The notes beneath the pieces were generated by a model that saw only the letters and a list, made by a program, of their open reading frames with translations, was not told where the DNA came from and ran no database searches. Shown here one piece after another: positions 7,630 to 43,978 of a stretch of 44,149 bases of DNA (positions are counted from its first letter, which is position 1; each line of letters begins with the position of its first letter). Origin of the DNA: a virus; the IMG/VR virus record IMGVR_UViG_3300031245_000003, positions 1-44,149 of that record; one strand, 5' to 3'. The position numbers and the translations under genes are program-made.

Positions 7630-8031
7630 TTATAAAATTTCTTTAAGTAATTTTGCTAATTGAGAAGGAGTATATTCTTTCTCTGCTCCATCAAATGTAT
7701 TTACATTTGGGACAGAGGCTTTTGCGGTTTTACTTTCACGAGAAGCGAAAGAAACCAGCTCTTGAACCATAAATTCAAGCGCAGAATCAGATAAATTAAG
7801 GAGCATATCTTTATTCTCCTCAAAATAAGATTCAGGCTTTTCAATTCCTCTATCAGCAAACAGACGTTTAATGTTTTCTAATTTAATTTGAGCTTCTTTT
7901 TCAGCTTCAGCTTGCTGCTTATACAAGCGAAGCTCTTCAAGTTCAGCTTCATAAGTCTGAAGTTGAGCTTGTAGCTCACCAATTGTTTTTTCAAGCTCGC
8001 CAATCTTGGCTAAGGCTTCTTCAAGTTCCAT
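7630..8031 (-). CDS. Nested scaffold protein from an internal start
   Basis: Within the protease-scaffold gene an in-frame ATG at 8031 (Met278) is preceded by GAGGAG with 8 nt spacing (GAGGAGAATGCAACTATG). It falls exactly at the start of the coiled coil (MELEEALAKIGELEK). This would yield a separate 133-residue scaffold sharing the C-terminus of the protease, the arrangement known for lambda C/Nu3. That it is used is inference from the ribosome binding site and domain boundary. Confidence 0.6.
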   Translation of the reverse strand: MELEEALAKIGELEKTIGELQAQLQTYEAELEELRLYKQQAEAEKEAQIKLENIKRLFADRGIEKPESYFEENKDMLLNLSDSALEFMVQELVSFASRESKTAKASVPNVNTFDGAEKEYTPSQLAKLLKEIL

Positions 8032-8862
8032 AGTTGCATTCTCCTCTTCATTAATTTGTTTCAAAATACGTCTAGCTTTTTCTAATAATCTTTTTCTCAA
8101 TTCTGGAGTTAACCATCCCTCTCCAGTATTTTCTTGAGATAACCTTACTATCGCATTGCGTAAATGAGGTAAGTCAATATTTCCCTCATCATCTTTATAA
8201 GGTAGATGCCTCAAAGAACGAGGAACTGTCTTTCCCTCCTCATCTTTTTTACCCCCGTCTTCGATATATAAGAAAGCAGAATCGGGTAAATCATTAATAT
8301 ATTTACGAGACCATTTCTCAGCATCTGAATCCTCAACGGAGGCTATTGCTAAAAATTTAGCTCTGTCGGCATAGGCAGGATTAGCCACAATTGCAACACC
8401 AGTTAAAATTGTACCTTTTAGAATTTCAACATCATTTTCAAACTCAGATTCGTGATAAGAGATTTCCCAAGAAACTTTAGGAAGATTCCCCTCCGATGCC
8501 ATTTCCTCCAATAAGCTAACATCATCAGGTCTTTCTTTTTTCCATAAAGCAGCCAGGGCAACTAGACTATTTCTATTGTTAATAACATCTTTCTTTATAT
8601 GCGTAATAACACCAATAGGCTTTTTCTCAGCCTCTTTATGCCCGTTTGAAATTTGATTAAAATCCATTTTAAGGGGCGTATATACTCCCGTCATAATCAA
8701 ATTATCAAATTCCGATTCTGGGATTTTCTGGTTATTCAAGTTAACATCATCATCTGTTAAAACAAACTTCGCCCACTTGAAAAATGGATTTAATCCAATT
8801 GAGGCTGTAGCCTCATTGGTTAAAAATTCAAAAGAGGTTTCAAATGTTTGTTTATTCGACAT
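7630..8862 (-). CDS. Fused prohead protease and scaffold
   Basis: 410 residues. Residues 1-175 look like a herpesvirus/HK97-type serine prohead protease: NGHKEAEKKPIG (His75), KVSWEISY (Ser131) and VANPAYADRAKF near 159-170. Residues 180-270 form a second domain (LPDSAFLYIEDGGKKDEEGK and PHLRNAIVRL) seen in phage protease/scaffold polyproteins. Residues 278-410 are a coiled-coil scaffold region (ELEKTIGELQAQLQTYEAEL). The protein should guide coat assembly and then cleave the scaffold before DNA packaging. TAGGAGGAGCA precedes the ATG. Confidence 0.85.
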   Translation of the reverse strand: MSNKQTFETSFEFLTNEATASIGLNPFFKWAKFVLTDDDVNLNNQKIPESEFDNLIMTGVYTPLKMDFNQISNGHKEAEKKPIGVITHIKKDVINNRNSLVALAALWKKERPDDVSLLEEMASEGNLPKVSWEISYHESEFENDVEILKGTILTGVAIVANPAYADRAKFLAIASVEDSDAEKWSRKYINDLPDSAFLYIEDGGKKDEEGKTVPRSLRHLPYKDDEGNIDLPHLRNAIVRLSQENTGEGWLTPELRKRLLEKARRILKQINEEENATMELEEALAKIGELEKTIGELQAQLQTYEAELEELRLYKQQAEAEKEAQIKLENIKRLFADRGIEKPESYFEENKDMLLNLSDSALEFMVQELVSFASRESKTAKASVPNVNTFDGAEKEYTPSQLAKLLKEIL

Positions 8863-14570: not shown

Positions 14571-15541
14571 GCTAACTCCTTTCTAACCTGCTCTTCAATC
14601 CAAAAATACGTTCGTTTCAATCCCTCTCCCAAAGGAATCTTAGGAGACCAGTCTAAAAGTTTTTTGATTAATCTGTTATCAGAAGTTCTAGCTTTAACAC
14701 CGATAGGTGCATTATTTAGTATATACCTTACTCGAATATCTTTTCCAGCTATGCTGCTAATCATAAAAATCAACTGATTAATCGAAACCATCTCCTCAGA
14801 GCCGATATTTACCGTCTCTTTATAAGGAGAGTTTACCAAAGCTAACACGGCATCTAGACAATCTTCTACATGGAGGTATGACCTAGTTTGCGTCCCATCT
14901 CCCCAGACTTCAATTTCTCCTCCATTTTCGACTTGAGCGATTTTTCTACATAATGCCGCGATTGACTTTTCCCGACCTCCTTTCCACGTCCCTTTCTCCC
15001 CATAAACATTGTGGAATCTGGCAATTCTTATGTCTAAATTATAATTTCTTCTATAAGAATCATACACTATTTCACTAAACAATTTTTCCCAACCATAAAC
15101 GCTATCAGGATTTGCTGGAAAGGCTGTGTCCTCACTGATTTTGATATTATCAGGGTCAAGCTGATTATGGGATGGATAAACACAAGCTGAGGAACTAAAA
15201 AATAAAACTCCAATGTCAAACTTGACAGCCACCCGCGCCACATTCAAATTAATCATTGCCGAATTTGTTACCAAGTCAGCATCATGCTCCCCAGTAAAGA
15301 CAAACCCAGCTCCTCCCATATCAGCAGCCAGTTGAAACACAAAATCAAATGAACCCTCAAAAGACTTTTTAACAATATCTATATCCCGTAAATCTCCCAA
15401 AATAAAATGGTCGGTATATACAGGCTGCCACTCGTTTTGTTTTCTATCAACACCTCTAACCCAAAATCCTTCTTTCTTCAATCTGTTCACCAAGTGTCCT
15501 CCAATAAACCCTCCAGCACCTAAAACTAAAGCTCTTCTCAT
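14567..15541 (-). CDS. GDP-mannose 3,5-epimerase-like SDR enzyme
   Basis: 324-residue extended short-chain dehydrogenase. It has the NAD-binding GAGGFIGGHL (8-17), SSSACVYP with Cys120, and YGWEK giving Tyr149/Lys153. It also has RIARFHNVYGEKGTWKGGRE, WGDGTQTRSYLHVEDC, NIGSEEMVSINQL and a C-terminal DNRLIKKLLDWSP. This series matches GDP-D-mannose 3,5-epimerase very closely, including the catalytic Cys that most sugar epimerases lack. The enzyme would make GDP-L-galactose or GDP-L-gulose in the cytoplasm, a plausible donor for the adjacent glycosyltransferases. Confidence 0.88.
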   Translation of the reverse strand: MRRALVLGAGGFIGGHLVNRLKKEGFWVRGVDRKQNEWQPVYTDHFILGDLRDIDIVKKSFEGSFDFVFQLAADMGGAGFVFTGEHDADLVTNSAMINLNVARVAVKFDIGVLFFSSSACVYPSHNQLDPDNIKISEDTAFPANPDSVYGWEKLFSEIVYDSYRRNYNLDIRIARFHNVYGEKGTWKGGREKSIAALCRKIAQVENGGEIEVWGDGTQTRSYLHVEDCLDAVLALVNSPYKETVNIGSEEMVSINQLIFMISSIAGKDIRVRYILNNAPIGVKARTSDNRLIKKLLDWSPKIPLGEGLKRTYFWIEEQVRKELA

Positions 15542-15812: not shown

Positions 15813-16808
15813 CTAATTTTTATTTACTTCTTTATCAACCATTAAACAATGAGGACTAAACCAAATTCGCTCTTTAAACCTGTTTTTAGCATTTTTATTT
15901 TCTCGCTTACTAGTACCATAGGCACGCCTCCCCACCCAACTTATTTTATGCCATCCCAACTCTTCTAACATATTATGCTCGCCCTCATAACCACAAAGTG
16001 CAATTCTAAGGCGAGGGTTGTTAGAATTCTCGACACACCAATTTCTAACTTCTGCAGCTAAATTATCATCATCAACTGTATAAATATTTTCTGAACGAAC
16101 TTCTTTTGAATACGGAGGGTCAAAAAATATACCTACAGTTTTAAATTCAGATAAATCTACTCCAGTAACAACACTTTTCCAATCTCCGCAACAAATCTTT
16201 ACACGGTGTAACCTGTTTGATAGTTGAGTAAGATAAGCTAAAACATCAAAATCTTTACCTCTAACGATTCCAATACTAGGTGATGTCAGGTGGGGTCTTT
16301 TTCTACGAACACCCTCCAATTTAGCGTCTTTACCTAAAACCTTTTTCCAATTAACCAATTTACCATCAATTTCAGTCCAGGGAGCATCTCCCTTACACCA
16401 ATCACCCCCACCTCCTAGCCAGATAGATACCCCCCATACCCACCAGCCTGCTACCTTGGGGTCATAAAAATTTAGGTCAGCGGGAACTCTAGATGCTAAT
16501 TCAGGTTTAATATATTTAACTAGCCAAATATGTCTAGCTGTTAAATCTGCCTCATTGACAGGATTATCTACATGCTTTGCGACCTCATCCGGCGCATTTT
16601 TAACAGCCCGCCAAAAATTAGCAACAAAATAATCTTTATCATTAATAATCTCAATTTTAGGAGTCGAAGGTCTTAAAAACAAAACCGCGCCGGCACCAAA
16701 AAATGGTTCTATATAACAATCTACATCACCAAAAAACCGCCAAACAGTGTCAGCGATACTCCTCTTATTACCAAACCAAGGAAATGGGGCAATATATCTT
16801 TTATCCAT
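15813..16808 (-). CDS. DNA adenine methylase, D12 class (Dam-like)
   Basis: 331 residues with the D12-class order: FPWFGNKR (9-16, SAM site), YIEPFFGAGAVLF (32-44, motif I), and GIFFDPPYSKEV (motif IV, DPPY). It transfers a methyl group from S-adenosylmethionine to N6 of adenine in a short DNA site. No restriction enzyme gene is nearby, so self-protection against host restriction is the likely purpose (inference). AGGATA precedes the ATG, and only four bases separate it from the macrodomain gene. Confidence 0.9.
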   Translation of the reverse strand: MDKRYIAPFPWFGNKRSIADTVWRFFGDVDCYIEPFFGAGAVLFLRPSTPKIEIINDKDYFVANFWRAVKNAPDEVAKHVDNPVNEADLTARHIWLVKYIKPELASRVPADLNFYDPKVAGWWVWGVSIWLGGGGDWCKGDAPWTEIDGKLVNWKKVLGKDAKLEGVRRKRPHLTSPSIGIVRGKDFDVLAYLTQLSNRLHRVKICCGDWKSVVTGVDLSEFKTVGIFFDPPYSKEVRSENIYTVDDDNLAAEVRNWCVENSNNPRLRIALCGYEGEHNMLEELGWHKISWVGRRAYGTSKRENKNAKNRFKERIWFSPHCLMVDKEVNKN

Positions 16809-17622: not shown

Positions 17623-18378
17623 TTATGCAAAAATTAAATCTAATTTTCCAGCACAATTAGCCCAAAATGGACATAACTTTTCATTACAAAACGGACTGCT
17701 TGTGTTCAGTGGAAAATTATTATTTTTTATAAATAAATTCATCCTATACCAAACAAACTCTAAAAGAGCGTCCAATTTGTCCTCCACATCCTCCTTTGAT
17801 AAATTAACTACATAAGTTTCAATTCGAAACCCACTGTTTTTTGAGAATGAAATAAATTTAAATTTATTACCTATGCCAAATGTAGTTCGTACTCCTCTCA
17901 AATAAATAGCAGGTTGTAACCAATAACTTTCCCAGTGAAATTTACTGCCGAAAGTCTTAAAATCTACAACCGTACCATCTGCTAAAACACAGTCAACAAA
18001 TCCCTTTATTGGGATAGGAATTGACGCTGAGCTAAATTGAAATTCTTTTTCTAGAACTGGTTCAGCGTCTATATAGTATGGCTGTAGTTTAGATAATTCA
18101 CTCTCTACATGGGGTGATGAAAATAATAAATTACCTTTTTGAACGTAATCACTTGGTAAAGACAACTTCGATTTTTGACAAGTGGACTCCCAAATATCTT
18201 CTAATTTTTGCTGCTTATTAGATAAAAATTGCGCAACAGTTTGGTGGAATAAAGAGCCGAATAAGGTATCGATAGTTTGAGGTTTAGGCTCCTTATCAAT
18301 ATAAATTCGCTTCCACCTCTGGGCGCAATCTAAAAAAGTCGATATACTCGAATAGGATAAATGGTCTGTAGGAAACAA
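17623..18378 (-). CDS. PD-(D/E)XK nuclease, Cas4/AddB-like with Fe-S cysteines
   Basis: 251 residues. Nuclease motifs are GSLFHQTV (His45), KGFVDCVLADG (Asp129) and VVDFKTF (Asp139, Lys141). Cys18 near the N-terminus and Cys231, Cys236 and Cys242 near the C-terminus form the four-cysteine iron-sulfur arrangement of Cas4 and AddB/RecB-type exonucleases. It may process DNA ends in recombination. There are no Cas1/Cas2 genes, so a CRISPR adaptation role is unsupported. The start is TTG with GAGGA upstream. Confidence 0.85.
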   Translation of the reverse strand: MFPTDHLSYSSISTFLDCAQRWKRIYIDKEPKPQTIDTLFGSLFHQTVAQFLSNKQQKLEDIWESTCQKSKLSLPSDYVQKGNLLFSSPHVESELSKLQPYYIDAEPVLEKEFQFSSASIPIPIKGFVDCVLADGTVVDFKTFGSKFHWESYWLQPAIYLRGVRTTFGIGNKFKFISFSKNSGFRIETYVVNLSKEDVEDKLDALLEFVWYRMNLFIKNNNFPLNTSSPFCNEKLCPFWANCAGKLDLIFA

Positions 18379-22310: not shown

Positions 22311-23333
22311 ATGATAAAGAAAAAACAATTTGAAAATTTACTTGAAGAGTTAGCTGAGTATATAACGAATCCTGATGACACTTTGAAGGTAATCTCATCT
22401 GGAATTGTTAGTTTAGACATTATTTTGGGAACTGGAGGGATTCCTTTAGGTAGATTTATAGAGTTATTTGGTCCTCCTGCCAGTGGTAAAACGACAATTG
22501 CGATGACAATTGTTAGTGAGTTTTTAAAAGCTGATGATAGGTTTGTATCATATTGTGATGCTGAGCAGGGGTTATCTGAGTCTTTTATTAGTTATTTTAT
22601 TACGCCTGAATTGCGAGAGAGATTTTTGCTACTTCAGCCCGGCACTCTAGAAGATGCGCTTACAGTTTGCGAAAAGGCGATTAATTCAAAGTCATGCAGC
22701 CTTGTTATTTTAGACTCAATTGGGTCTTTAGTTCCTCAGGCGGTTTTGAAAAATAATTTGGGCGATAGTCATGTTGCTGTTTTATCTAGAATCTTTACCC
22801 AGTTTTTACAGCGAAATATGTCTAATGCGCGAATAAATGCGTGTACTTTTATCGGAATCAACCAGGTTAGAGCTGACTTTGGTAGTTATATAAAGTCATT
22901 TGCTACACCAGGTGGGTTTGCTTGGAAGCATCTAATTACTTTAGGCATTGAGTTAAAGTTCCCTAGTATGATAAAGCAGGGAGATGATAAAATCGGTCAG
23001 AATACTCCGATTGTAATAAAGAAGAACAAGTTAGCGACCCCTTTACGTAGTTTTCCAGTTCCGATTATTTATGGGAAGGGCGTAGATAAGATTAGAGATA
23101 TTATTCAATTTGGCGAGGTTGCTGGTATAATTAATAAAAGAGGCTCGTATTATGTCTTTGATGATATAAATCTTGGATTAGGTATGAATAATGCGATTAA
23201 ATTTTTAGAATCTAGTCCAGAAGTACTTGACAAAATCAAAGAAAGGTGCTATAATTTACTTGAAAAATTTGATAATGTATCTTTTGAGGTTCTAGAGAAA
23301 GGAGATGATGATGCCGAGGTCGATTTCAGTTGA
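22311..23333 (+). CDS. recA: RecA/UvsX-type recombinase
   Basis: 340 residues. Walker A GPPASGKT (54-61) follows GGIPLGRFIELF, Walker B is LVILDSIG (Asp135), and a DNA-binding loop region occurs around FIGINQVRADFG and ATPGGFAWKH. It forms filaments on single-stranded DNA and drives strand exchange for recombination-dependent replication and repair. The acidic C-terminus (KGDDDAEVDFS) is typical. It lies 12 bases after polA. A consensus promoter lies within its 3' end, and the next gene starts inside it. Confidence 0.93.
   Translation: MIKKKQFENLLEELAEYITNPDDTLKVISSGIVSLDIILGTGGIPLGRFIELFGPPASGKTTIAMTIVSEFLKADDRFVSYCDAEQGLSESFISYFITPELRERFLLLQPGTLEDALTVCEKAINSKSCSLVILDSIGSLVPQAVLKNNLGDSHVAVLSRIFTQFLQRNMSNARINACTFIGINQVRADFGSYIKSFATPGGFAWKHLITLGIELKFPSMIKQGDDKIGQNTPIVIKKNKLATPLRSFPVPIIYGKGVDKIRDIIQFGEVAGIINKRGSYYVFDDINLGLGMNNAIKFLESSPEVLDKIKERCYNLLEKFDNVSFEVLEKGDDDAEVDFS
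23227..23255 (+). promoter_or_regulatory. Consensus promoter inside the recA 3' end
   Basis: TTGACA (23227-23232), exactly 17 bp, TATAAT (23250-23255), with TGC before the -10. It matches the other phage promoters and sits about 50 bases before the ribosome site of the gene at 23311. Confidence 0.75.
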
Positions 23334-27037: not shown

Positions 27038-27065
27038 TTGACAAGCTGATAAAGTGTGTTATAAT
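27038..27065 (+). promoter_or_regulatory. Sigma70-type promoter
   Basis: TTGACA (27038-27043), 16-bp spacer, TATAAT (27060-27065), with TGT before the -10. It is flanked by CTTGACAAG as in the divergent control region. It lies just after the exonuclease stop and drives the small-gene/Csx16/RNA-ligase segment. Confidence 0.85.
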
Positions 27066-31555: not shown

Positions 31556-31584
31556 TTGACATTTTCCAAGCTCTAGGCTATAAT
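31556..31584 (+). promoter_or_regulatory. Sigma70-type promoter
   Basis: TTGACA (31556-31561), 17-bp spacer, TATAAT (31579-31584), 12 bases after the primase stop. It would drive the small zinc proteins and the following methylase genes. Confidence 0.9.
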
Positions 31585-32411: not shown

Positions 32412-33008
32412 ATGACTGGTAACATTACTTTATATAATGATGATTGTTTTAATATTTTTGATAAAATTCCAAGTGAAAGTATAAAGGTAGTTGTACTCGA
32501 CCCGCCTTATGCTAAACAGTATCTCAATCTTTATATAGATATTTTGCCTCATATTTATCGGATTTTACAGAAAGGAGGTAGTTATTTTGCAATAATTCCT
32601 CAACATACCATGCCTAAAATTATTGAAGAAACAAGTAAGGTTTTGAAATGGCGTTGGATTATCTGTATAAATCAGGAGAAATATAATCACGCCAGGCTAA
32701 GCATGGGAATCGAGGTGATGTGGAAGCCCATGGGTTGGTGGGTAAAAGGTTCTTTTCAACGTAAAAGTTTTATGAAAGATATGGTTTTTTCTGATAGAGA
32801 GAAAACTTTACATGGTTGGCAGCAGAGTTTATCCTGGGCTTCCTACTGCTTACAAGTTACAAGTCCAGGTGATACCGTTTTAGACCCTTTTATGGGTACA
32901 GGGACTGTTGGAGTAGCTCGCAAGAAACTAGAGAGAAATTTTATAGGAATTGAGTTAGACAAGGAAACTTTTGAAATTGCTAAAAAACGAATAGAGGAAG
33001 TTGATTAG
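32412..33008 (+). CDS. DNA methyltransferase, beta class (N6-A or N4-C)
   Basis: 198 residues. Motif IV VVLDPPYAKQY (Asp30) precedes motif I VLDPFMGTGTVGVARKKLER near the C-terminus, the beta-class order, followed by NFIGIELDKE. DPPY usually indicates adenine N6 methylation. Short for the class, so the target-recognition part is minimal. No cognate restriction gene. AAAAGGAA lies very close to the ATG. Confidence 0.85.
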   Translation: MTGNITLYNDDCFNIFDKIPSESIKVVVLDPPYAKQYLNLYIDILPHIYRILQKGGSYFAIIPQHTMPKIIEETSKVLKWRWIICINQEKYNHARLSMGIEVMWKPMGWWVKGSFQRKSFMKDMVFSDREKTLHGWQQSLSWASYCLQVTSPGDTVLDPFMGTGTVGVARKKLERNFIGIELDKETFEIAKKRIEEVD

Positions 33009-33021
33009 AAAGGAGAATAAA

Positions 33022-33333
33022 ATGGACATCGCTAATGTTGTATCATTTACACTGGAAATTGCAAAATATACTACTGCAACCCCTGAAGAATTGACTGAGT
33101 TAATTAGCCTAACCAGGAGATTGCATACTGTAAACGAACGTCTTTGCATGGAGGAAAATAATATAGAACGCTTGCTAAAAAAGCAGGAACGCATTGAAAA
33201 TCGCATAAAAGAACTAGCTGGTAAAATCGGGGCTATTGGTGTTATTTGTAGTAATGACCCTCGATACGCAACTGTTAAACTTTACTTCGAGGGTATGCCA
33301 GATTTCATGGATGGAATAAGTGTACCATATTGA
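33022..33333 (+). CDS. Coiled-coil protein, unknown
   Basis: 103 residues starting MDIANVVSFTLEIAKYTTAT, with AAAGGAG before the ATG (a start seven codons earlier would include the ribosome site). A long charged helix (NNIERLLKKQERIENRIKEL) is followed by a small C-terminal domain. Function not recognised. Confidence 0.55.
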   Translation: MDIANVVSFTLEIAKYTTATPEELTELISLTRRLHTVNERLCMEENNIERLLKKQERIENRIKELAGKIGAIGVICSNDPRYATVKLYFEGMPDFMDGISVPY

Positions 33334-33363
33334 TAATAACTCGAACGGGGAAAGGAGGATAAA

Positions 33364-34110
33364 ATGGAACTAGAACAATATGCTTACTGGGCATTTAATC
33401 ATATGTTACGGGTAAATCCCGCATTACCACTCACTGCACGAGATTTTAATCGAGCAGTAAGAAAAATAAAAGCAACCGCAGCTCTCCTTTATACTCTAGC
33501 AGTGAGTGATGAGGAGGAGGGCGTGCTTCGGTTTCTTGCCCAGGAGTTAGTAGATGAGGGGTCGGCAATAGGCATTGTCGGTTCCTGGTCTGGTATTGGC
33601 TCCTGCCGTCGGTACGCTAAAGACAGAGGGGGATATTATGCGTATGCCATGAAAAGGGCAATAGATGCAGCCCTCCTGGATGGTGGTATGTTGTGCCTGC
33701 CTCTAAAAGACGCAAACAAAGTGATATTATCACTATATCCGCATACATGGTGTGCCGTGCGTGCGTTAATTAATTGCCAGAAGTTCCCCGAACTAAACTG
33801 CGAGGGGGAGGTAGCATTAGCAGTTTTACGCGAGTGGGATGTGTTCTATAAAATTTATCACATCCCCAAATTCACGGAAAGAATGGCACGAGAGCTTAGC
33901 TCCCCCATCAAATTCGCAATCGATGAGGATTGTGGATACATGACTTTATGGACAAAACAAGATACTGATGGGAATATTAGCGCTATCGATGACGGTTATT
34001 GGCATTTCTTCAGCGGTACTCTAGAAAATGCCCACACTAAATGTGGAGGAGTCATTCGTGGTGTGGGATGGTACGTAAGCTTACGACCTTTTACAATAGA
34101 AGGAGAATAA
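33364..34110 (+). CDS. Unknown protein with atypical base composition
   Basis: 248 residues, not recognised. Tyr- and Trp-rich, with segments GSAIGIVGSWSGIGSCRRYA and GGVIRGVGWYVSLRP. Six cysteines are scattered rather than paired. Base and codon use is clearly richer in G+C (GGG, GCC, CCC codons) than the surrounding replication genes, and the sequence contains many perfect inverted repeats (for example 33428-33437 with 33499-33508). Both traits are shared with the leftward operon at 38-44 kb. AAAGGAGG precedes the ATG. Confidence 0.6.
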   Translation: MELEQYAYWAFNHMLRVNPALPLTARDFNRAVRKIKATAALLYTLAVSDEEEGVLRFLAQELVDEGSAIGIVGSWSGIGSCRRYAKDRGGYYAYAMKRAIDAALLDGGMLCLPLKDANKVILSLYPHTWCAVRALINCQKFPELNCEGEVALAVLREWDVFYKIYHIPKFTERMARELSSPIKFAIDEDCGYMTLWTKQDTDGNISAIDDGYWHFFSGTLENAHTKCGGVIRGVGWYVSLRPFTIEGE

Positions 34111-34112
34111 AA

Positions 34113-34532
34113 ATGAACGATATACTATATATACTTATTGAAAAAACTTCAAAAGGGTTCCCTGCTATTTGGGTTGGAGGTGGGGCAACCGCTCGCCAGT
34201 TTTCAGCCCAGTTTGTCTTGCGGGATAAAAAACTTGCTCCAGCAAGCTTTATTGTCGAGAGTGAGTTTGTATGCAATAATAATCAGGCATTAGTCCCCCT
34301 CCAAAGGGGGGATGTAATTGTGGTAATTCAGGGGATGTATCCCGCCCATCCAGATAACCCCGTAATCGGGCTTCACGGGTGGAAGGTAAAAGGATTCAAA
34401 ATCAATGATGACAATTGTATTGCCATTGCTAAATCTGTCGACATTAGCATAAACGATGTACCCTTCTCCGTCTGGGAGGGATGCAGCGTTTATCACAACC
34501 GAGATGCACGTTACTTTATCGCTGATGAATAA
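34113..34532 (+). CDS. Unknown protein, same unusual class as its neighbour
   Basis: 139 residues starting MNDILYILIEKTSKGFPAIW, with AGAAGGAG upstream of the chosen ATG. Beta-rich (FIVESEFVCNNNQALVPLQR, GDVIVVIQGMYPAHPD). It shares the higher G+C and inverted repeats of the 33364 gene. Not recognised. The stop overlaps a possible small gene (TAATG). Confidence 0.6.
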   Translation: MNDILYILIEKTSKGFPAIWVGGGATARQFSAQFVLRDKKLAPASFIVESEFVCNNNQALVPLQRGDVIVVIQGMYPAHPDNPVIGLHGWKVKGFKINDDNCIAIAKSVDISINDVPFSVWEGCSVYHNRDARYFIADE

Positions 34533-34633
34533 TGTGTAACCCTCCCCCTATCCCCATTGCAATAGTGCAACCGGGGCTGGAGCTATTTATGAGAATAACC
34601 TCTTTAGAAGCTATTTTATTAGGAAAGGATTAG
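34532..34633 (+). CDS. Possible 33-residue peptide
   Basis: An ATG in a TAATG overlap with the preceding stop opens a 33-codon frame (MCNPPPIPIAIVQPGLELFM at the start). It ends just before the next gene, whose ribosome site AAAGGAT lies at its 3' end. Translational coupling is possible. No other support. Confidence 0.25.
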   Translation: MCNPPPIPIAIVQPGLELFMRITSLEAILLGKD

Positions 34634-38003: not shown

Positions 38004-38057
38004 CAAAATTATTTAGGACTTTAGATACGAGGAATGCTAGATGTAAATTGTGGATAT

Positions 38058-38084
38058 AAAAGCTAGGAAAAATCCTGGCTTTTT
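38058..38084 (+). terminator. Terminator of the rightward operon
   Basis: AAAGCTAGGA (38059-38068) pairs with TCCTGGCTTT (38073-38082), one G-T pair, four-base loop, followed by TT. It lies 55 bases after nrdJ. Confidence 0.8.
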
Positions 38085-38369
38085 AATGCTTTAAATTTAA
38101 TTTTTGAATGGGTAGCGAAAGTGGAAGAGAATAATGTGTAAAATAATTGCCGTCATGTTAGAATTGAAATTGAAGAGAAGGTATTTTTGCCGGTAAAAAA
38201 TCGCTTGGAAAAATTCTAGAAAGTTTAAGCGCCATTTCTAGTAAAATTTTACTTTTGGAATTAAATTTTTTACCACCCTCAAAAATTAGGGTGGTGAAAA
38301 TAAAACTAGATTGGCTTTGAATCGTTTCACTGGTAGAAGATTTGGTCTAGAATATATCTTCCCTTAAAT
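38085..38369. other. Convergent intergenic stretch with an odd hairpin
   Basis: No gene seen in about 285 bases. A perfect 8-bp hairpin ACCACCCT/AGGGTGGT (38272-38279 with 38288-38295) has a T-run on its upstream plus-strand side and A-rich sequence downstream, so it is not an intrinsic terminator in either direction. The rest is A+T-rich without a convincing promoter. Confidence 0.4.
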
Positions 38370-38395
38370 AAAAAAGCCCCGCTTAGAGCGGGGCT
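38370..38395 (-). terminator. Terminator of the leftward operon
   Basis: AGCCCCGC (38375-38382) and GCGGGGCT (38388-38395) form a perfect 8-bp G+C stem with a 5-base loop. On the minus strand it is followed by TTTTTATTTA. It lies 20 bases after the stop at 38417. Confidence 0.92.
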
Positions 38396-38416: not shown

Positions 38417-38812
38417 TTATACTACATTTCTTGTTACACAATATTTACACATAACCTGGTCGGGAAAATATACTGCTCTGTATTTTCTTATTACATCACC
38501 ACATACAGAGCATATTTCATAATATTCATTGAAACAAGTGAGGCAATACCCCCTTGTGTCTTTAAACTTGTAGTCAAAGAAAAACACCCCGCAATTTTTA
38601 CAATTGCGGGCATCTTTCATACACTTCCTGCAATAATAAATTTTTAAAGCATAATTATATGTACATACATTATCTTCATCCTCATAATTTCCACATTTGT
38701 TGCAGAGGAAAAGTAATTCCCTGCAGGATTTACAAACCCATTGCAATTTTCCTTTATAAGGAATTAAAGTATCCCCCTCTTTTTCTTTACATACAACGCA
38801 TTTATTATTCAT
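38417..38812 (-). CDS. Protein made of tandem zinc knuckles
   Basis: 131 residues with eight CxxC pairs (CVVC, CKSC, CNKC, CRKC, CKNC, CLTC, CSVC, CKYC), enough for four treble-clef or LIM-like zinc sites. The spacing of CSVCGDVIRKY with a later CKYC resembles the zinc repeats in the C-terminal half of the 40263-41429 protein. Probable protein- or nucleic-acid-binding module. AAAGGAGGATTAAA precedes the ATG. The coding sequence holds perfect hairpins (38588-38610). Last gene of the operon. Confidence 0.65.
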   Translation of the reverse strand: MNNKCVVCKEKEGDTLIPYKGKLQWVCKSCRELLFLCNKCGNYEDEDNVCTYNYALKIYYCRKCMKDARNCKNCGVFFFDYKFKDTRGYCLTCFNEYYEICSVCGDVIRKYRAVYFPDQVMCKYCVTRNVV

Positions 38813-38830
38813 TTTAATCCTCCTTTTATA

Positions 38831-39487
38831 TTAATATTCTTCATCATCTTCTGGATTTTCTTCTATTTCCTTTTCAAGTTGAAATAAGAACTTTTTGTTC
38901 TTGTTTTCCTCATAAAAATAAAGGAACTTTTCGACGCTTTCTCGTGTCGCATCAAGGGAAGCGTAACAATTAATTTGGTGTGCGTCGTAGTAATTTATTC
39001 CGATATTAAATGCCATGGTTTTTAGGTGATACATGGAACAAATGTCGGAATAATTGCCCTCTACAATGGGGTCAAAATATTTATATAAATATTTTTTATC
39101 CCATTTGTAATTGTAGATGGCAACTCCGTACCCACTTTTGTCAAATTCCACTATCCAGTTATACTCCTTTTCTGGATAGAAGAATTTTCCGGTAGATAAT
39201 TCAATCTCTTCGTTGTTTGTTATTAGAACATCTATTTTTGCAAACCTAGGTAGATATTCTAATAACAGAAAAACCCCTAATCTATCGTCAAGATTGGGGG
39301 AAAAAGCTAGATTTAGCGTATTGTTATAAGCAAAATACCATTCCTTTTGCAAAAAATGAACGTCAGCATGGGCTACGCCCAAAACTGACGAATTATTATC
39401 GATAAATAAATACATTTCGTTGTTAAGTATCTCCCTTGTGGGAGCTAAACAATAATCTTTTAAAGTTTTTATATCTTTCCTGTTCAT
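38831..39487 (-). CDS. M20/M28-fold zinc metallopeptidase, paralogue B
   Basis: 218 residues. Putative metal ligands and catalytic residues, in order: GVAHADVHF (His40, Asp42), SPNLDDRLGV (Asp67/68), ITNNEEIE (Glu93/94), VEFDKSG (Asp116) and NIGINYYDAH (His170), with NYSDI before the last helix. This is the order of two-zinc aminopeptidases and related amidohydrolases. There is no signal peptide, so it acts in the cytoplasm. Paralogue of the gene at 41441-42235. The C-terminus is very acidic. GAAGGAG precedes the ATG. Substrate unknown. Confidence 0.8.
   Translation of the reverse strand: MNRKDIKTLKDYCLAPTREILNNEMYLFIDNNSSVLGVAHADVHFLQKEWYFAYNNTLNLAFSPNLDDRLGVFLLLEYLPRFAKIDVLITNNEEIELSTGKFFYPEKEYNWIVEFDKSGYGVAIYNYKWDKKYLYKYFDPIVEGNYSDICSMYHLKTMAFNIGINYYDAHQINCYASLDATRESVEKFLYFYEENKNKKFLFQLEKEIEENPEDDEEY
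38995..39053. repeat. Hairpin in peptidase B at the homologous position
   Basis: TTATTCCGA (38995-39003) pairs with TCGGAATAA (39045-39053), with an inner stem CCATG (39013-39017)/CATGG (39032-39036). It spans the same SDI...NIGI codons as the hairpin in paralogue A, but the inner stem uses different bases. Confidence 0.85.
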
Positions 39488-39502
39488 TTTTAACTCCTTC
39501 TT

Positions 39503-40270
39503 TTATATTAATATTTTCCCTGTAAATTCCCTACCTCTTGACGAAATTCTAATAAAATCCTTTTTCACGAGGTAGGGCTCAATTTCATTAATGATTGTAT
39601 TTTTATCCAATCCCGTTCCTCTCTGGAGTCTTTCCAAAGAGGATACTTTTACTTCCTGTAAGAATTCCAAATACTTTAAATCTAGTTCATTTAACCCGTA
39701 TTTGTAAATTCCTATTCTGTTTAAATATCTTTCTAGTTCCCTTATTGTTTGAGGAACCCTCTCATAGTTGCAAATAATTGATAGCCTTTTAGCTATCATT
39801 TTTGCTATGCGAGGATTATTCCTACATTTATAACTGAGGAAATTAATTAATTCATTTTTTAAGTTTACTTCTAAAGATGATTTTAAAATTTCCTCTATAT
39901 GATAAGGAGAATAATCCTCAAAAATTAAATTTATACACCTATTTATAACGGGTTCGGGTAAGGAACCCGATAAATTCGTGGCGAGGATGATTGTATATTT
40001 CCTCGAATCCATAAAATAATAAAGGAATTCGAAATTTTTGAGGGTATGGGCTTCATCGAAGAAATGAAACCTTTTATTTGTAAAAAAGTTCATCTCCCCT
40101 GGTGGATACATTATATAATCCTTACCCTCAAGGAATGAAAGGGCAAGGGTAGTTTTACCATATCCAGAGGGCGCCCTAAGTAAAATGTTAAAATTCTCGC
40201 CCCTCTCGACTTCTTTTTGTAAATAGCCCAGTTGGGCTATTATTTTTTCCTGATTAATAAACTTATTCAT
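39503..40270 (-). CDS. RuvB-like AAA+ ATPase
   Basis: 255 residues. P-loop APSGYGKTTLA, Walker B HFFDEAHTL, sensor 1 ATNLSGSLPEP and arginine-finger region VINRCINL. CRNNPRIAKMIAKRL follows as the sensor 2 helix, then a winged-helix end with LNELDLKYLEFLQ, IEPYLVKKDF and SSRGREFTGK, matching the RuvB C-terminal domain. RuvB drives branch migration of Holliday junctions. There is no ruvA or ruvC in the window, so it may be a RuvB-derived motor with a new partner. GGAGG lies seven bases before the ATG at 40270. Confidence 0.85.
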   Translation of the reverse strand: MNKFINQEKIIAQLGYLQKEVERGENFNILLRAPSGYGKTTLALSFLEGKDYIMYPPGEMNFFTNKRFHFFDEAHTLKNFEFLYYFMDSRKYTIILATNLSGSLPEPVINRCINLIFEDYSPYHIEEILKSSLEVNLKNELINFLSYKCRNNPRIAKMIAKRLSIICNYERVPQTIRELERYLNRIGIYKYGLNELDLKYLEFLQEVKVSSLERLQRGTGLDKNTIINEIEPYLVKKDFIRISSRGREFTGKILI

Positions 40271-41429
40271 CACCTTTCCTCCTACAGTACCAACAAATAT
40301 TGTTGTAATCTAGATTTACATCATAAAACCTTGCCCCGCATTTGGAGCATTTTTCTGTATATCTAAAATAACATTCTTCACATATATAATCCCCCTCTCC
40401 GTCTAAGTAAAGAATGTCCTCATTTCTAATGTACCTTTCACATTTACCACACCGGGTGTAATAATTTTCTAAACAATAACTACAGAGGATTCGGTCATAT
40501 TCCTCTAAATAGGTAGCTTCATCCCGCCTCACCACCTCCCCGCATCTATCGCAGGAGGTGAAAAGGTCGTTAAAGCATTCCTCGCAATACGGGTAATCAT
40601 TCCCCCAGTATACTTCAGATTCCCGTAATCTTGTCCCACATCTTTCGCAATAATACGGGGACTCTTTACATTCCTCGCAAAATACCTCGTATTGAGTATA
40701 TCCGTACGAGGACCAATCAATTTTTTCCCCACATTCTGAACAATAAAATGTGGGGTCTATTATTATCTCATTCTCAGCTAATAATTCTGGGTCATTAGAA
40801 ATTAAAATTCCAAAATTATTGTTGATGAACATGAGATTCTCGGCATCATCCTTTACCGAGAATCTTACCTCAGTGAAGCCCAGCCTTATTCCCTTTTTAT
40901 AATAATGCTGGGTTAAAATCCTTGCTACATCCTCTAATCGTAGATGATTAGAGGAGTACATATTGAATAGAATCCAGGAGGATTCCCCTATGGGATATGC
41001 CCAGCACCGGGAATTTCCCTGTTGGGAAAAAATTTTGATTGCTCTCCCCCCATTTTCAAGGAGGACTTCTTTTGCCATCTTTCTGTGCCCCCAGTAGCAG
41101 GAGTTATGGTCGGAGAATTCCCCCGCACGCCAATCTATTTTGGCGGTAATTTCGAGGGTTAACTGGAGGTTGGGACTAAGATTTTCAGCGTAAATCTTAC
41201 TTAACTCCCCCATCTTCTCATTTGAAATTTTTATTTTTAGTCTTGTTTCTATTAGCCTCTTTATCGCCTTCATGGGGCGAATATTTCCTCGCTCCATAAG
41301 GAGGCTAATCATTTCCTCCTTTAAGCCAAAACAGCTAAAGGAGTAACAAATTTTTTCTACCCCCAATTCAATTTGAGTGGGGGTTAATTCCCGTAATGCG
41401 GTAATTGTTTCACCATTTTCTAGTAGCAT
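40263..41429 (-). CDS. GEFxDxNSC-core protein with five zinc knuckles (long paralogue)
   Basis: 388 residues from the ATG at 41429 (AAAGGAGG five bases upstream). The N-terminal region is helical. Around 99-180 lies a core shared with the 42247 gene: DWRAGEFSDHNSCYWG, ENGGRAIKIF, RCWAYPIG and WILFNMYSSN. The last 155 residues hold ten CxxC pairs (CSEC, CEEC, CERC, CEEC, CDRC, CSYC, CGKC, CEEC, CSKC, CWYC), giving about five zinc sites in LIM-like array. I do not recognise the core family. It overlaps the RuvB-like gene, so they are translated together. Confidence 0.7.
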   Translation of the reverse strand: MLLENGETITALRELTPTQIELGVEKICYSFSCFGLKEEMISLLMERGNIRPMKAIKRLIETRLKIKISNEKMGELSKIYAENLSPNLQLTLEITAKIDWRAGEFSDHNSCYWGHRKMAKEVLLENGGRAIKIFSQQGNSRCWAYPIGESSWILFNMYSSNHLRLEDVARILTQHYYKKGIRLGFTEVRFSVKDDAENLMFINNNFGILISNDPELLAENEIIIDPTFYCSECGEKIDWSSYGYTQYEVFCEECKESPYYCERCGTRLRESEVYWGNDYPYCEECFNDLFTSCDRCGEVVRRDEATYLEEYDRILCSYCLENYYTRCGKCERYIRNEDILYLDGEGDYICEECYFRYTEKCSKCGARFYDVNLDYNNICWYCRRKGDE

Positions 41430-41440
41430 TTTTTCCTCCT

Positions 41441-42235
41441 TTATCCGAATGCACAAGAAGCGCACATTCGGTATTGTTCATAAATTAATTCTTCCTCCTC
41501 CGTTATCTCTGCTCCGCAAAATGGGCAGAAATTCTTTCCCCCACTTTCCTCATAAAAAGAGGGAGAAAGCCAATATTTGCTGTACTTATAATTATTTTTA
41601 CTCACCTTTTTGAGTGGAGGAGGGGGGGAAGGTTTATGTTTAAACCGTCTATTTTTATTTTCCTCAAAAAATTTGAGGAATCTTTTTATCGCCCTTTCTG
41701 TTTCAGAGAGGAGGGCGTAACAATTTATCCTATGTTTATAGTAATACCCAATTCCGATATTTAGACCTAAACACCCGAGGTGTTCCAGGTCAACAATATC
41801 GGAATAAGAGCCATAATTAACAGCGGGGAAATATTTCCTTAGAAATTTTTCATCCCACTGGTATTGGTACGTTGCTATATCATCATCCTCCCGGTCAAAT
41901 TCTACCACCCAGTGGTAGGTTTTAGGGGGGAAGAACAGTTTCGCAGAGGAATTCATGGATTCCTCTCCCGTAGTTATTAGAATATCTATATCGACATTTT
42001 TAAGTACTTCTAGTAGAATATACACCCCCAATCTATCATCTAGACCGGGGGAAAATACGATGTTTTTTCGTGGCTCATAGAGGAAAAATAATTCACTATC
42101 TTTGAAAACGGTATCCGCATGGGCTACCGCTAAAACTTTACCCCCTTTATCAATATATAGGAAGTCCTGGTTATTCACCAGGTTAGTAGTCTTTTCTAGG
42201 GCAATTTCCCTTAATTTTTTAATATTAAAAAACAT
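41441..42235 (-). CDS. M20/M28-fold zinc metallopeptidase with zinc ribbon, paralogue A
   Basis: 264 residues. Putative catalytic series: AVAHADTVF (His39, Asp41), SPGLDDRLGV (Asp66/67), ITTGEESM (Glu91/92), VEFDRED (Asp114), GSYSDI and NIGIGYYYKHR (His168). The C-terminus adds a Pro-rich linker (KPSPPPPLKK) and a zinc ribbon (CPFCGAE, CASC) not present in paralogue B. It probably hydrolyses a peptide or amide in the cytoplasm. AGGAGGCAAAA precedes the ATG. Its coding sequence contains many perfect hairpins, including the nested one at 41751-41805. Confidence 0.82.
   Translation of the reverse strand: MFFNIKKLREIALEKTTNLVNNQDFLYIDKGGKVLAVAHADTVFKDSELFFLYEPRKNIVFSPGLDDRLGVYILLEVLKNVDIDILITTGEESMNSSAKLFFPPKTYHWVVEFDREDDDIATYQYQWDEKFLRKYFPAVNYGSYSDIVDLEHLGCLGLNIGIGYYYKHRINCYALLSETERAIKRFLKFFEENKNRRFKHKPSPPPPLKKVSKNNYKYSKYWLSPSFYEESGGKNFCPFCGAEITEEEELIYEQYRMCASCAFG
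41751..41805. repeat. Three-tier hairpin in peptidase A
   Basis: Stems ATTCCGATATT (41751-41761) with 41795-41805 (11 bp), GACCT (41764-41768) with AGGTC (41787-41791), and AACACC (41770-41775) with GGTGTT (41779-41784). It spans codons for the SDI...NIGI segment. The paralogue has a hairpin at the same codons (38995-39053). Confidence 0.9.
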
Positions 42236-42246
42236 TTTTGCCTCCT

Positions 42247-43053
42247 CTATTTTGCTACTGGTATATCACACGAGGGACAGTAAAGATTACTGTCCCTCGT
42301 ATATGTTTTCAAATTTAATACGGGGTAGGATTTTTCGCAGGTGGGGCAGAATATTAAGGTATCTGAAAGATACCTTTCCAATTTCTCCCAATAAAATTCT
42401 GCCCCTTCCATAGTTACAAAATAAAAATAATTGTGATTTGTATAAATATTGGGGATATCCCCGTTTATCATTTCGTAAATTCCCCCTAAATAAATCGCCA
42501 GTAACCTGGCGAAGAAAATTAAATTGTAATTCCTGGTGTTGTAGGAATTAAACACCAGGAAATTTCTTTCATTTTTATCATAGGGCAGAACCCAAGCCCT
42601 GCCCAAGGGGGATTGAGATTCATCAAAAACCTTCATTGCATACCCCCCTAGTAATTTAATTCTCGTTCTTTGGTATTTGTATACACCAAAGAAGCAAGAA
42701 TTCTCATCACCGAATTCCCCAGGAGTCCAGTTAAAATCCCGGGAGAACTCGATGAAATATTCCCGATTATAAAGGGTATGCTTCTGGGCAATATTTCCAA
42801 CCTTGCCCAGAATTTTGCTGTCTAGAACAACCCCCCACTGACGCTTGCAAATTTTTGCAAGCCTCTTGGGGAATGTTCCCGCTATCTCCCCCCTCGTTAT
42901 CACCCAATCGGGGGAGATTTTGGCGATTATAAAGGGAAAGTCCAGGTAAAATCCTGCCTCCCTTAGAGTCCTCTCAATTTCCTCTAACCCCCTTGAGTCA
43001 ATTTCCGCGTCCTTAAGGGGGACATTTACTTTTGTTTTCCCTTCTGGCAGCAT
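42247..43053 (-). CDS. GEFxDxNSC-core protein with single zinc ribbon (short paralogue)
   Basis: 268 residues. Core at 108-190: NWTPGEFGDENSCFFG, LGGYAMKVFD, GRAWVLPYDK and FLVFNSYNTRN, matching the long paralogue at 40263-41429. The C-terminus has one zinc ribbon (CPTC, CPSC). The strictly kept GEF, D, NSC, GG, K, W and FN suggest an enzyme or binding site, but no known family is recognised. AAGGAGAG precedes the ATG. Paired with peptidase paralogue A directly downstream, mirroring the long paralogue with peptidase B. Confidence 0.68.
   Translation of the reverse strand: MLPEGKTKVNVPLKDAEIDSRGLEEIERTLREAGFYLDFPFIIAKISPDWVITRGEIAGTFPKRLAKICKRQWGVVLDSKILGKVGNIAQKHTLYNREYFIEFSRDFNWTPGEFGDENSCFFGVYKYQRTRIKLLGGYAMKVFDESQSPLGRAWVLPYDKNERNFLVFNSYNTRNYNLIFFARLLAIYLGGIYEMINGDIPNIYTNHNYFYFVTMEGAEFYWEKLERYLSDTLIFCPTCEKSYPVLNLKTYTRDSNLYCPSCDIPVAK
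42270..42300. repeat. 13-bp perfect inverted repeat in coding sequence
   Basis: ACGAGGGACAGTA (42270-42282), 5-base loop, TACTGTCCCTCGT (42288-42300). It covers the last cysteine pair codons of the 42247 gene. It is the longest simple hairpin in the operon. There is no T-run on the minus-strand side. Confidence 0.9.
42343..42405. repeat. Nested inverted repeats in coding sequence
   Basis: The outer stem GGGGCAGAAT (42343-42352) pairs with ATTCTGCCCC (42396-42405). Inside lies AAGGTATCT-GAA-AGATACCTT (42356-42376), a perfect 9-bp hairpin. All within the 42247 gene. Confidence 0.9.
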
Positions 43054-43210
43054 TTTTTTTTCTCTCCTTATCCTAATATAATTTCCATTTTTTGCTGAGA
43101 CTAATTATATCCTGGATATATAATTAGCCCCGGCAAAAAATAACCAGCACTCGCTGGGGGCGCTGGTTTGGTTATGTGTGTTATTTTTTTTTTAGTTTTG
43201 TGGGAGGCAT
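43054..43210 (-). promoter_or_regulatory. Intercistronic structured region, possible attenuator
   Basis: No gene in this 157-base gap. On the minus strand a stem AACCAGC/GCTGGTT (43168-43162 with 43148-43142) is followed by ATTTTTT, a terminator-like shape. Its T-run is also one arm of a second stem, TTTTTTGC/GCAAAAAA (43140-43133 with 43095-43088), enclosing a 10-bp A+T stem (43127-43118 with 43110-43101). The two forms are mutually exclusive, as in attenuators. The gap separates the two promoter-proximal genes from the rest of the operon. Confidence 0.5.
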
Positions 43211-43414
43211 TTAAATTATTCGGAACCCTCGCTCCTCTGCGAGGGTTTTTAATTCAAGGAAAAAGGATTCCTGTTCTTCCCAGGGAAGGGAGCTGGAGAG
43301 CCTTTCCAGCTCCCTTTGAAAAATGAAATCCTTTTCTCTTGTTTCCAAGAGGAATAATTTTTCGAGGAAGTATGATAGTATTTCCTCTTTGTTAATATTA
43401 GATACTTTTTTCAT
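43211..43414 (-). CDS. Small helical protein, unknown
   Basis: 67 residues starting MKKVSNINKEEILSYFLEKL. The ATG at 43414 has AGGAG seven bases upstream and is preferred to one five codons earlier. It is charged and helical throughout. The last codons lie in a perfect 9-bp hairpin, AACCCTCGC/GCGAGGGTT. No family recognised. Confidence 0.55.
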   Translation of the reverse strand: MKKVSNINKEEILSYFLEKLFLLETREKDFIFQRELERLSSSLPWEEQESFFLELKTLAEERGFRII

Positions 43415-43418
43415 CTTA

Positions 43419-43874
43419 CTACTCCTCATGAAGAAATAATATTTTTCCTCTCCTTCTAATGAGGGAGAAGATTTTTTCCGCCTCCTCCTTGGAGGCGATG
43501 AAATCTACTTTAAATTTTTTATAAGAAGTGCCTTGAGGGGATTGAGGTGAAAGGTTCGCGGGAGGAAGCAGGAGTTTTTCCAGCTCCTGCCAATCAACCC
43601 CCAAGGATTTCAGTTCCCTGGGGGTTGTTCTTATCAATTTTTTCTGCGGGGAGATAATTCCTCCCCATATCCTTAAAGAAATTAAGGAGGCCTTGAATTT
43701 AATGCCTCCTATTTTAAAAAATACACACCCCTCCCCTTTTTCAATAGAAGGGGGACGGGACGAGAAAATGTTCCCTTCCTCCAATACGTACTGTAGGAGG
43801 GTCTTTTTTTCAAGGGGAGGCTTTTTGGGAGCCTCCCCAAAATCGTTTCTGAAAATGTGTTTCCTTTTTATCAT
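43419..43874 (-). CDS. Unknown protein, first gene of the leftward operon
   Basis: 151 residues starting MIKRKHIFRNDFGEAPKKPP. The ATG at 43874 follows AAAGGAGAGGT. An open frame extends to 43940 but would translate the structured leader. The protein is basic, with segments FFKIGGIKFKASLISLRIWG and KVDFIASKEEAEKIFSLIRR. No cysteine. No family recognised. The position directly after the promoter suggests it may be needed first or in quantity. Confidence 0.55.
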   Translation of the reverse strand: MIKRKHIFRNDFGEAPKKPPLEKKTLLQYVLEEGNIFSSRPPSIEKGEGCVFFKIGGIKFKASLISLRIWGGIISPQKKLIRTTPRELKSLGVDWQELEKLLLPPANLSPQSPQGTSYKKFKVDFIASKEEAEKIFSLIRRRGKILFLHEE

Positions 43875-43885
43875 ACCTCTCCTTT

Positions 43886-43938
43886 CCCCTCCTTTTGGGG
43901 AGGAGGGGGTGCTAGGCATAGGCATCTGGCTAGATGCC
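43886..43938 (-). promoter_or_regulatory. Two leader hairpins before the 43874 start
   Basis: On the minus strand GGCATCT-AGCC-AGATGCC (43938-43921) comes first, near the expected mRNA 5' end. CCCCTCC/GGAGGGG (43908-43902 with 43892-43886) follows, its 3' arm touching the ribosome site AAAGGAG. A 5'-end hairpin can protect phage mRNA. The second may limit ribosome access. Confidence 0.6.
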
Positions 43939-43949
43939 ACGCTTGTAGC

Positions 43950-43978
43950 ATTATACCAGTATGTTGTCGTACTGTCAA
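43950..43978 (-). promoter_or_regulatory. Consensus promoter of the leftward operon
   Basis: On the minus strand, TTGACA (43978-43973), exactly 17 bp, TATAAT (43955-43950), with TGG before the -10 (extended -10). Perfect sigma70 consensus, suggesting strong early transcription by host polymerase. Confidence 0.93.

What the first reader, a model, noticed from the sequence alone, without database searches (positions are those of the whole stretch)
38417..43938. A 5.5-kb operon whose coding sequence is packed with near-perfect hairpins
Reading the plus strand I find an inverted repeat with a 7-13 bp perfect stem and short loop about every 50-100 nt, almost all inside genes. Examples are the 13-bp stem 42270/42288, 11-bp stem 42530/42551, and 10-bp stems 40834/40856, 42782/42803 and 43288/43305; many are nested. 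Stretches of the structural operon and dnaB read for comparison show only isolated 5-6 bp stems. Codon choice seems bent to make the message fold on itself. Possible reasons (inference): protecting early mRNA from RNases, slowing translation, hiding the transcript from RNA-guided defences such as type III CRISPR, DNA cruciform or single-strand functions, or polymerase template switching that perfects quasi-palindromes. I cannot choose between them. G-U type pairs occur in both orientations, so the strand of action is not settled.
Basis: partly seen in the sequence, partly recalled or inferred. Interest (0 to 1): 0.93.

Follow-up and report, generated by a model that had tools for sequence, protein, structure and literature searches.

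The report
Phage operon packed with DNA palindromes
One cluster of eight genes in a Yellowstone hot-spring phage, and the matching cluster in its sister phages, is full of short perfect mirror-image DNA segments inside the protein-coding sequence, about eight times more than in the phage's other genes or in other phages, and the pattern looks like a DNA-level palindrome-making process rather than simple protection of the messenger RNA.

Summary
All eight genes of 38417-43940 (minus strand) fold far better than synonymous-codon shuffles (z -3.6 to -10; operon-wide about -20; 0 of 100 shuffles reach any gene). Most other genes lie near 0 to -2. Perfect stems of at least 8 bp inside genes number 4.1/kb, against 0.52/kb in the rest of the window and 0-0.66/kb in 17 other phage sequences. 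Two sister phages, with cores about 94-98% identical, have the same property in the same locus, partly in unrelated genes. So it belongs to the locus, not to a gene family. The simple mRNA-protection reading is not supported. Excess pairing is Watson-Crick and strand-symmetric: G-U and A-C mismatches are equally common, antisense structure is as extreme, stems show no codon-register bias, spans are at most about 35 nt, and unstructured 36-nt windows are not depleted. Best explanation (confidence 0.42): DNA palindromes made and kept perfect mainly by replication template switching (two clean loop inversions seen), with some purifying selection on stems. Template-switch footprints are rare between sisters, so selection at DNA, guide or RNA level remains open. 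Host, expression timing and function are unknown.

The parts
43950..43978 (-). Predicted sigma-70 promoter of the operon: TTGACA, 17 nt, TATAAT, with TG before the -10
   Evidence: 12 of 12 consensus match; prediction only
43921..43938 (-). 7-bp hairpin GGCATCT-agcc-AGATGCC near the predicted 5' end of the transcript
43419..43940 (-). Gene 1, 173 aa, no family match (P0005)
   Evidence: sense z -4.7, antisense -5.8
43286..43316 (.). 12-bp perfect stem, 7-nt loop
43211..43429 (-). Gene 2, 72 aa, no family match (P0006)
   Evidence: sense z -3.6, antisense -5.0
43101..43127 (.). 10-bp intergenic stem, 7-nt loop
42247..43053 (-). Gene 3, 268 aa with C-terminal Cys pairs; 27% identical to gene 5; strongest folding signal
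   Evidence: sense z -10.0, antisense -7.4; sister copy L023:16405-17223, about 70% aa identity, sense z -5.6
42782..42812 (.). 10-bp perfect stem, 11-nt loop
42530..42561 (.). 11-bp perfect stem, 10-nt loop; 10 of 11 pairs kept in the sister phage
42270..42300 (.). 14-bp perfect stem, 3-nt loop; mostly absent in the sister phage
41441..42235 (-). Gene 4, 264 aa, weak M42-peptidase-like N-terminal part and a Cys-rich tail
   Evidence: sense z -6.5
40263..41465 (-). Gene 5, 400 aa, double zinc ribbon and many Cys pairs
   Evidence: Pfam DZR 2.2e-6; sense z -9.3
40930..40955 (.). 10-bp perfect stem, 6-nt loop
40834..40865 (.). 10-bp perfect stem, 12-nt loop
39503..40273 (-). Gene 6, 256 aa, AAA ATPase with RuvB C-terminal domain or clamp-loader-like
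   Evidence: Pfam RuvB_C 2.8e-15, PHROG 168 4.3e-8; sense z -6.2; sister L023:17393-18163, about 82% aa identity
38831..39487 (-). Gene 7, 218 aa, M42-peptidase-like, 45% identical to gene 4
   Evidence: sense z -6.1
38588..38610 (.). 9-bp perfect stem, 5-nt loop
38417..38812 (-). Gene 8, 131 aa, zinc-ribbon-like (weak)
   Evidence: sense z -4.5
38375..38395 (.). Predicted bidirectional intrinsic terminator, 9-bp GC-rich stem

Best explanation
The operon carries many short, discrete, perfect DNA palindromes (arms 7-14 bp, loops 3-14 nt) written into a fast-changing accessory gene cassette. I propose that they are made and kept perfect chiefly at the DNA level. During replication the polymerase switches template at short imperfect inverted repeats, copies one arm onto the other and sometimes inverts the loop. 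Events survive where proteins tolerate change, and established stems are then partly conserved. Shown: the enrichment, its confinement to the operon, its recurrence in sister phages, strand symmetry, indifference to codon register, short range, preference for perfect over one-mismatch stems, two loop inversions, and slower change in stems. Inferred: that template switching is the main source, that the cassette is expressed early, and why only this locus is affected.
For: Strand symmetry: mismatches inside hairpins are 21 G-U against 26 A-C in hairpin-rich regions, against 30:10 in control genes. Excess pairs are G-C and A-U, while G-U pairs fall on both strands. Changes giving G-U and A-C in stems are equally accepted (both 0.71 of the outside rate). 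Perfect stems of at least 8 bp (loops up to 40) are about 4.4 times the shuffle level, summed over the eight genes, but one-mismatch stems with at least 8 paired positions only about 1.7 times. Register: 22/23/24 stems in the three phases, although synonymous-only change should disfavour 12/21/33; amino-acid-level complementarity in that phase is 15 against 4.9 +/- 2.2. Enrichment is confined to loops of 3-14 nt and spans of 18-35 nt. Loop inversions: tcat/atga between conserved 12-13-bp arms in the sister cassettes, and a 14-nt loop reversed with one mismatch near 38057-38084 of the window. Arm homogenization, loop inversion and short spacers are the described marks of template switching (PMC8604942).
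Against: Direct footprints are rare. Of 46 gap-free mutation clusters between the two sister cassettes only 2 fit a local reverse-complement copy of at least 9 nt, and 0 of 60 do so for genes 3 and 6 between window and sister. Both clean loop inversions lie in terminator-like hairpins, one outside the operon. The general process should also affect core genes and non-coding gaps, yet core genes and nearby non-coding DNA such as 38101-38250 are not enriched. Stems are GC-rich (0.44-0.47 against 0.375) and conserved (0.107 against 0.156 +/- 0.017 expected), which fits selection. The boundary coincides with the predicted transcript.
Confidence: 0.42

Rival explanations
1. Selection for folded mRNA: hairpins protect a host-promoter transcript from RNases, Rho or R-loops in a cell living near 60 C.
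For: Signal begins at the predicted start site and stops at the terminator. A 7-bp hairpin lies near the 5' end. Synonymous choice supplies most of the energy. Structure persists at 60-70 C in silico (-11.5 against -6.1 at 60 C). Regions just before start codons stay open (0.60-0.64 unpaired against 0.46). Stems are GC-rich and conserved.
Against: No preference for G-U over A-C, antisense equally extreme, no register bias, no enrichment of stable RNA tetraloops, and the start-codon opening is also present on the antisense strand. Four other perfect consensus promoters occur in the window, and the operons around them are not structured.
Confidence: 0.28
2. Selection at the DNA or guide level: short self-complementary segments spoil guides or spacers of either strand (CRISPR, Argonaute), or act as single-stranded DNA hairpins or cruciforms.
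For: Strand symmetry is predicted, because a guide can come from either strand. Enrichment ends at a span of about 35 nt, near common spacer lengths. Stems are conserved.
Against: 36-nt windows without structure are as common as in shuffles (0.17 against 0.17; both strands 0.28 against 0.31), so there is no uniform shield. The host is unknown; 231 genomes related to one candidate gave no near-perfect full spacer-length match to 24.2-44.1 kb.
Confidence: 0.18
3. Artefact or compositional side effect: assembly or amplification chimeras, GC content, or protein-family composition.
For: Third-position GC is raised in the operon (0.30-0.48 against 0.27), and the contigs are metagenomic.
Against: Shuffles keep composition and protein. 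Genes are intact. The gene 3/gene 6 region with its stems is essentially identical in two separate sister contigs from different samples. Distant M42-like relatives in 11 contigs are mostly unstructured.
Confidence: 0.03

Closest known systems
Coding palindromes in mitochondrial genes of Nematomorpha (PMC6649704)
   Same: Perfect inverted repeats inside functional protein-coding genes, gained and lost between relatives; the authors suggest repeat conversion or template switching.
   Different: Those repeats reach 284 bp and show codon-phase bias. Here arms are at most 14 bp, far denser, show no phase bias, and sit in one operon of a DNA phage.
Template-switch (quasi-palindrome) mutagenesis (PMC8604942, PMC8794818, PMC3820800)
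   Same: Short spacers, perfect arms, loop inversion, coding changes; one study ties such mutations to high transcription.
   Different: Known as scattered single events, not as a property that dominates a whole operon; footprints between sisters are few here.
Genome-scale ordered RNA structure and conserved coding structures of viral mRNAs (e.g. PMC6563262)
   Same: Coding sequence with more folding energy than codon-preserving shuffles.
   Different: Those concern RNA genomes or mRNA. Here pairing is strand-symmetric and confined to one operon of a double-stranded DNA phage.

Membership tests
Template-switch palindrome formation | Loop (spacer) inversion between conserved arms | tested here: met
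   Two clear cases, tcat/atga and the 14-nt loop near 38057-38084
Template-switch palindrome formation | Multi-base arm homogenization copied from the other arm | tested here: inconclusive
   2 of 46 clusters in the sister cassettes, 0 of 60 for genes 3 and 6; ratio above chance only for clusters of 3 or more
Template-switch palindrome formation | Short spacers and strand symmetry | tested here: met
mRNA-level structured coding region | Excess folding over codon-preserving shuffles | tested here: met
mRNA-level structured coding region | Sense-strand polarity (G-U tolerated more than A-C) | tested here: not met
mRNA-level structured coding region | Structure forms in the transcript and alters its fate | not testable with these tools
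   needs infected-cell probing
Nematomorpha-type coding palindromes | Perfect inverted repeats within functional coding genes | tested here: met
   22 of 23 stems of 8 bp or more inside genes
Nematomorpha-type coding palindromes | Long arms (tens to hundreds of bp) and codon-phase bias | tested here: not met
   Longest local (loop up to 14 nt) arm 14 bp; phases 22/23/24; paper's values
Guide or spacer evasion | No protospacer-sized window left unstructured | tested here: not met
   0.17 against 0.17 in shuffles

The most novel reading that the evidence does not exclude
A phage accessory operon is under sustained selection to be built of short double-strand-symmetric palindromes, a DNA-level signal carried on top of the protein code that blunts nucleic-acid-guided immunity or serves an unknown single-stranded DNA function, with new genes acquiring it when they enter the cassette.
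Probability: 0.18. Interest if true: 0.92.

Novelty: new variant of a known kind. Interest (0 to 1): 0.68.

Why it matters
Coding DNA rarely carries dense perfect palindromes because they conflict with the protein. A locus where whole genes, even unrelated ones in sister phages, take on this form is a natural experiment. It can show whether mutation alone (template switching) can rewrite genes into hairpins, or whether phages use palindromes as a second code. It also warns that a folding excess over codon shuffles is not by itself proof of an mRNA function: strand symmetry has to be tested.

Tried and rejected
1) Property of the gene families: distant M42-like relatives in 11 viral contigs are mostly unstructured, with only mild signals in three. 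2) Strong host promoter as sufficient cause: four other perfect promoters are present without structured genes. 3) Uniform anti-guide shield: unstructured 36-nt windows not depleted. 4) Template switching as sole driver of recent divergence: few footprints; an earlier looser count (8 against 1) overstated it because one loop inversion is counted in both directions and gapped stretches were included. 5) Host by spacer match: 231 genomes around a Nitrospirae genome, no near-perfect full-length spacer match; four further genomes, nothing. 6) Relatives of genes 5 and 6 in viral contigs by single-protein search: none; an alignment of genes 5 and 3 also found none. 7) Rfam: only a tRNA. 8) RNA-stable tetraloops: no enrichment. 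9) Bulk compensatory change: 26 both-changed Watson-Crick pairs against 23 broken, close to what transition bias gives by my estimate, so no proof of structure.

Full report
Where it is. The window is a virus record of 44,149 bases. Four contigs matching its terminase at 98-99% come from IMG/VR metagenomes; one of these, 3300005452, is tied to a Mushroom Spring mat study sampled at 60 C. The phage encodes terminase, portal, PolA-type polymerase, UvsX-like recombinase, DnaB, primase, RNA ligase, ribonucleotide reductase and methyltransferases. The finding covers a minus-strand cluster of eight genes between a perfect sigma-70-type promoter (43978-43950) and a bidirectional terminator (38375-38395). 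Its products are two M42-like proteins (45% identical to each other), an AAA/RuvB_C protein, zinc-ribbon proteins and orphans. That the operon is expressed early is an inference, not shown.

Observation. Every named stem is present, two of them longer than stated. With protein and codon use held fixed, all eight genes fold far better than chance: z -3.6 to -10 sense and -5.0 to -8.8 antisense, with 0 of 100 shuffles reaching the native value. Operon-wide z is -19.8 sense and -16.7 antisense in 100-nt windows. Other genes are mostly 0 to -2, with mild exceptions at 550-1743, 7630-8862, 17623-18378 and 33364-34110. Coding stems of at least 8 bp with loops up to 14 nt: 22 in 5.4 kb, against 19 in 36.7 kb for the rest of the window and 0-0.66/kb in six isolated phages and eleven viral contigs. 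Among 775 3-kb windows of phage and bacterial DNA, the twelve most extreme all belong to this phage and its two sisters.

Sister phages. IMGVR_UViG_3300031512_000004 (G001; loci L023 and L024) is about 94-97% identical to the window in the core, but its matching cassette is rearranged: gene 3 is about 70% and gene 6 about 82% identical in protein, genes 4 and 5 are reduced to a fused remnant, and unrelated genes stand upstream. That cassette is hairpin-packed (several genes with z between -3 and -6, some intergenic stretches beyond) while the rest of the genome is not. A third contig, 3300031948_000002 (L025), shows the same. The property therefore goes with the locus. A gene family present in the cassettes and also at window 34.1 kb, outside the operon, is less structured there.

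Strand of action. If sense RNA were the object of selection, G-U pairs should be preferred over A-C mismatches. They are not: 21 against 26 inside hairpins in the cassettes, 30 against 10 in control genes. In folded structures G-C and A-U pairs rise and G-U pairs fall on both strands. Between sisters, changes that turn a pair into G-U or into A-C are equally accepted in stems (0.71 each). The window/sister pair alone leans towards G-U and the sister/sister pair leans the other way, neither significantly. Antisense structure at 60 C is as extreme as sense.

Coding register. Synonymous choice supplies most of the energy. Yet stems are spread evenly over the three codon phases (22/23/24), although synonymous change alone should rarely yield the 12/21/33 phase, and amino-acid-level complementarity in that phase is in excess (15 against 4.9 +/- 2.2). 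So the process is partly blind to coding. Nematomorph coding palindromes, by contrast, do show phase bias (PMC6649704).

Range and perfection. Enrichment is confined to loops of 3-14 nt and spans of 18-35 nt. Perfect stems of at least 8 bp are about 4.4-fold enriched (sum over genes), but one-mismatch stems with at least 8 paired positions only about 1.7-fold. This binary character is what conversion between arms predicts. The hairpins are discrete: unstructured 36-nt windows are as common as in shuffles.

Footprints. Two loops are inverted between relatives while their arms stay in place, the hallmark of template switching described for yeast (PMC8604942). But stringent tests find few other copy events. 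Stem sites change less than codon-phase-matched shifted sites (0.107 against 0.156 +/- 0.017; 0.0004 of shifted sets as low; the two directions are not independent). Purifying selection or arm-to-arm conversion could each cause this.

Judgement. The mRNA-protection reading keeps real support from transcript boundaries, GC-rich conserved stems and open start sites, but it fails the polarity test. A DNA-level process with template switching as source explains symmetry, register-blindness, range and perfection, but not why only this locus is affected. I rank it first at 0.42, RNA selection 0.28, DNA- or guide-level selection 0.18. The host is unknown; a Nitrospirae-like epimerase as best match (61%) is only a hint.

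Noticed in passing
window 38057-38084 against L023 (sister): A terminator-like hairpin near the end of the replication operon has its loop inverted between the phages (taggaaaaatcctg/caggatttttcctg), a template-switch signature outside the operon.
   Followed up: partly
window 7630-8862: A late-operon gene of unknown function with strong antisense folding excess (z -7.4; sense -4.0).
   Followed up: no
window 33001-34600: A segment inserted in the replication operon whose genes have homologues inside the hairpin-rich cassette of the sister phages; 33364-34110 is itself structured (z -4.8).
   Followed up: partly
window 18906-18878, 23227-23255, 27038-27065, 31556-31584, 43978-43950: Five perfect TTGACA/TATAAT promoters where 0.14 are expected by chance; four precede unstructured operons.
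   Followed up: partly
L023:12092-14050: The most extreme hairpin packing seen, GC up to 0.65 in a 0.35 GC phage, with coding and intergenic hairpins nearly back to back.
   Followed up: partly
L023:14160-14370, 14930-15000, 16080-16160: Repeated intergenic elements with GCGCCA...TGGCGC ends and 'taaaaatggcg' cores between cassette genes, possibly regulatory.
   Followed up: no
L023:17210-17390: A fused remnant of genes 4 and 5 of the window, showing deletion within the cassette.
   Followed up: partly
L122 (phage T7): T7 has no perfect stem of at least 8 bp with a loop of 14 nt or less in 39.9 kb, below the chance expectation.
   Followed up: no
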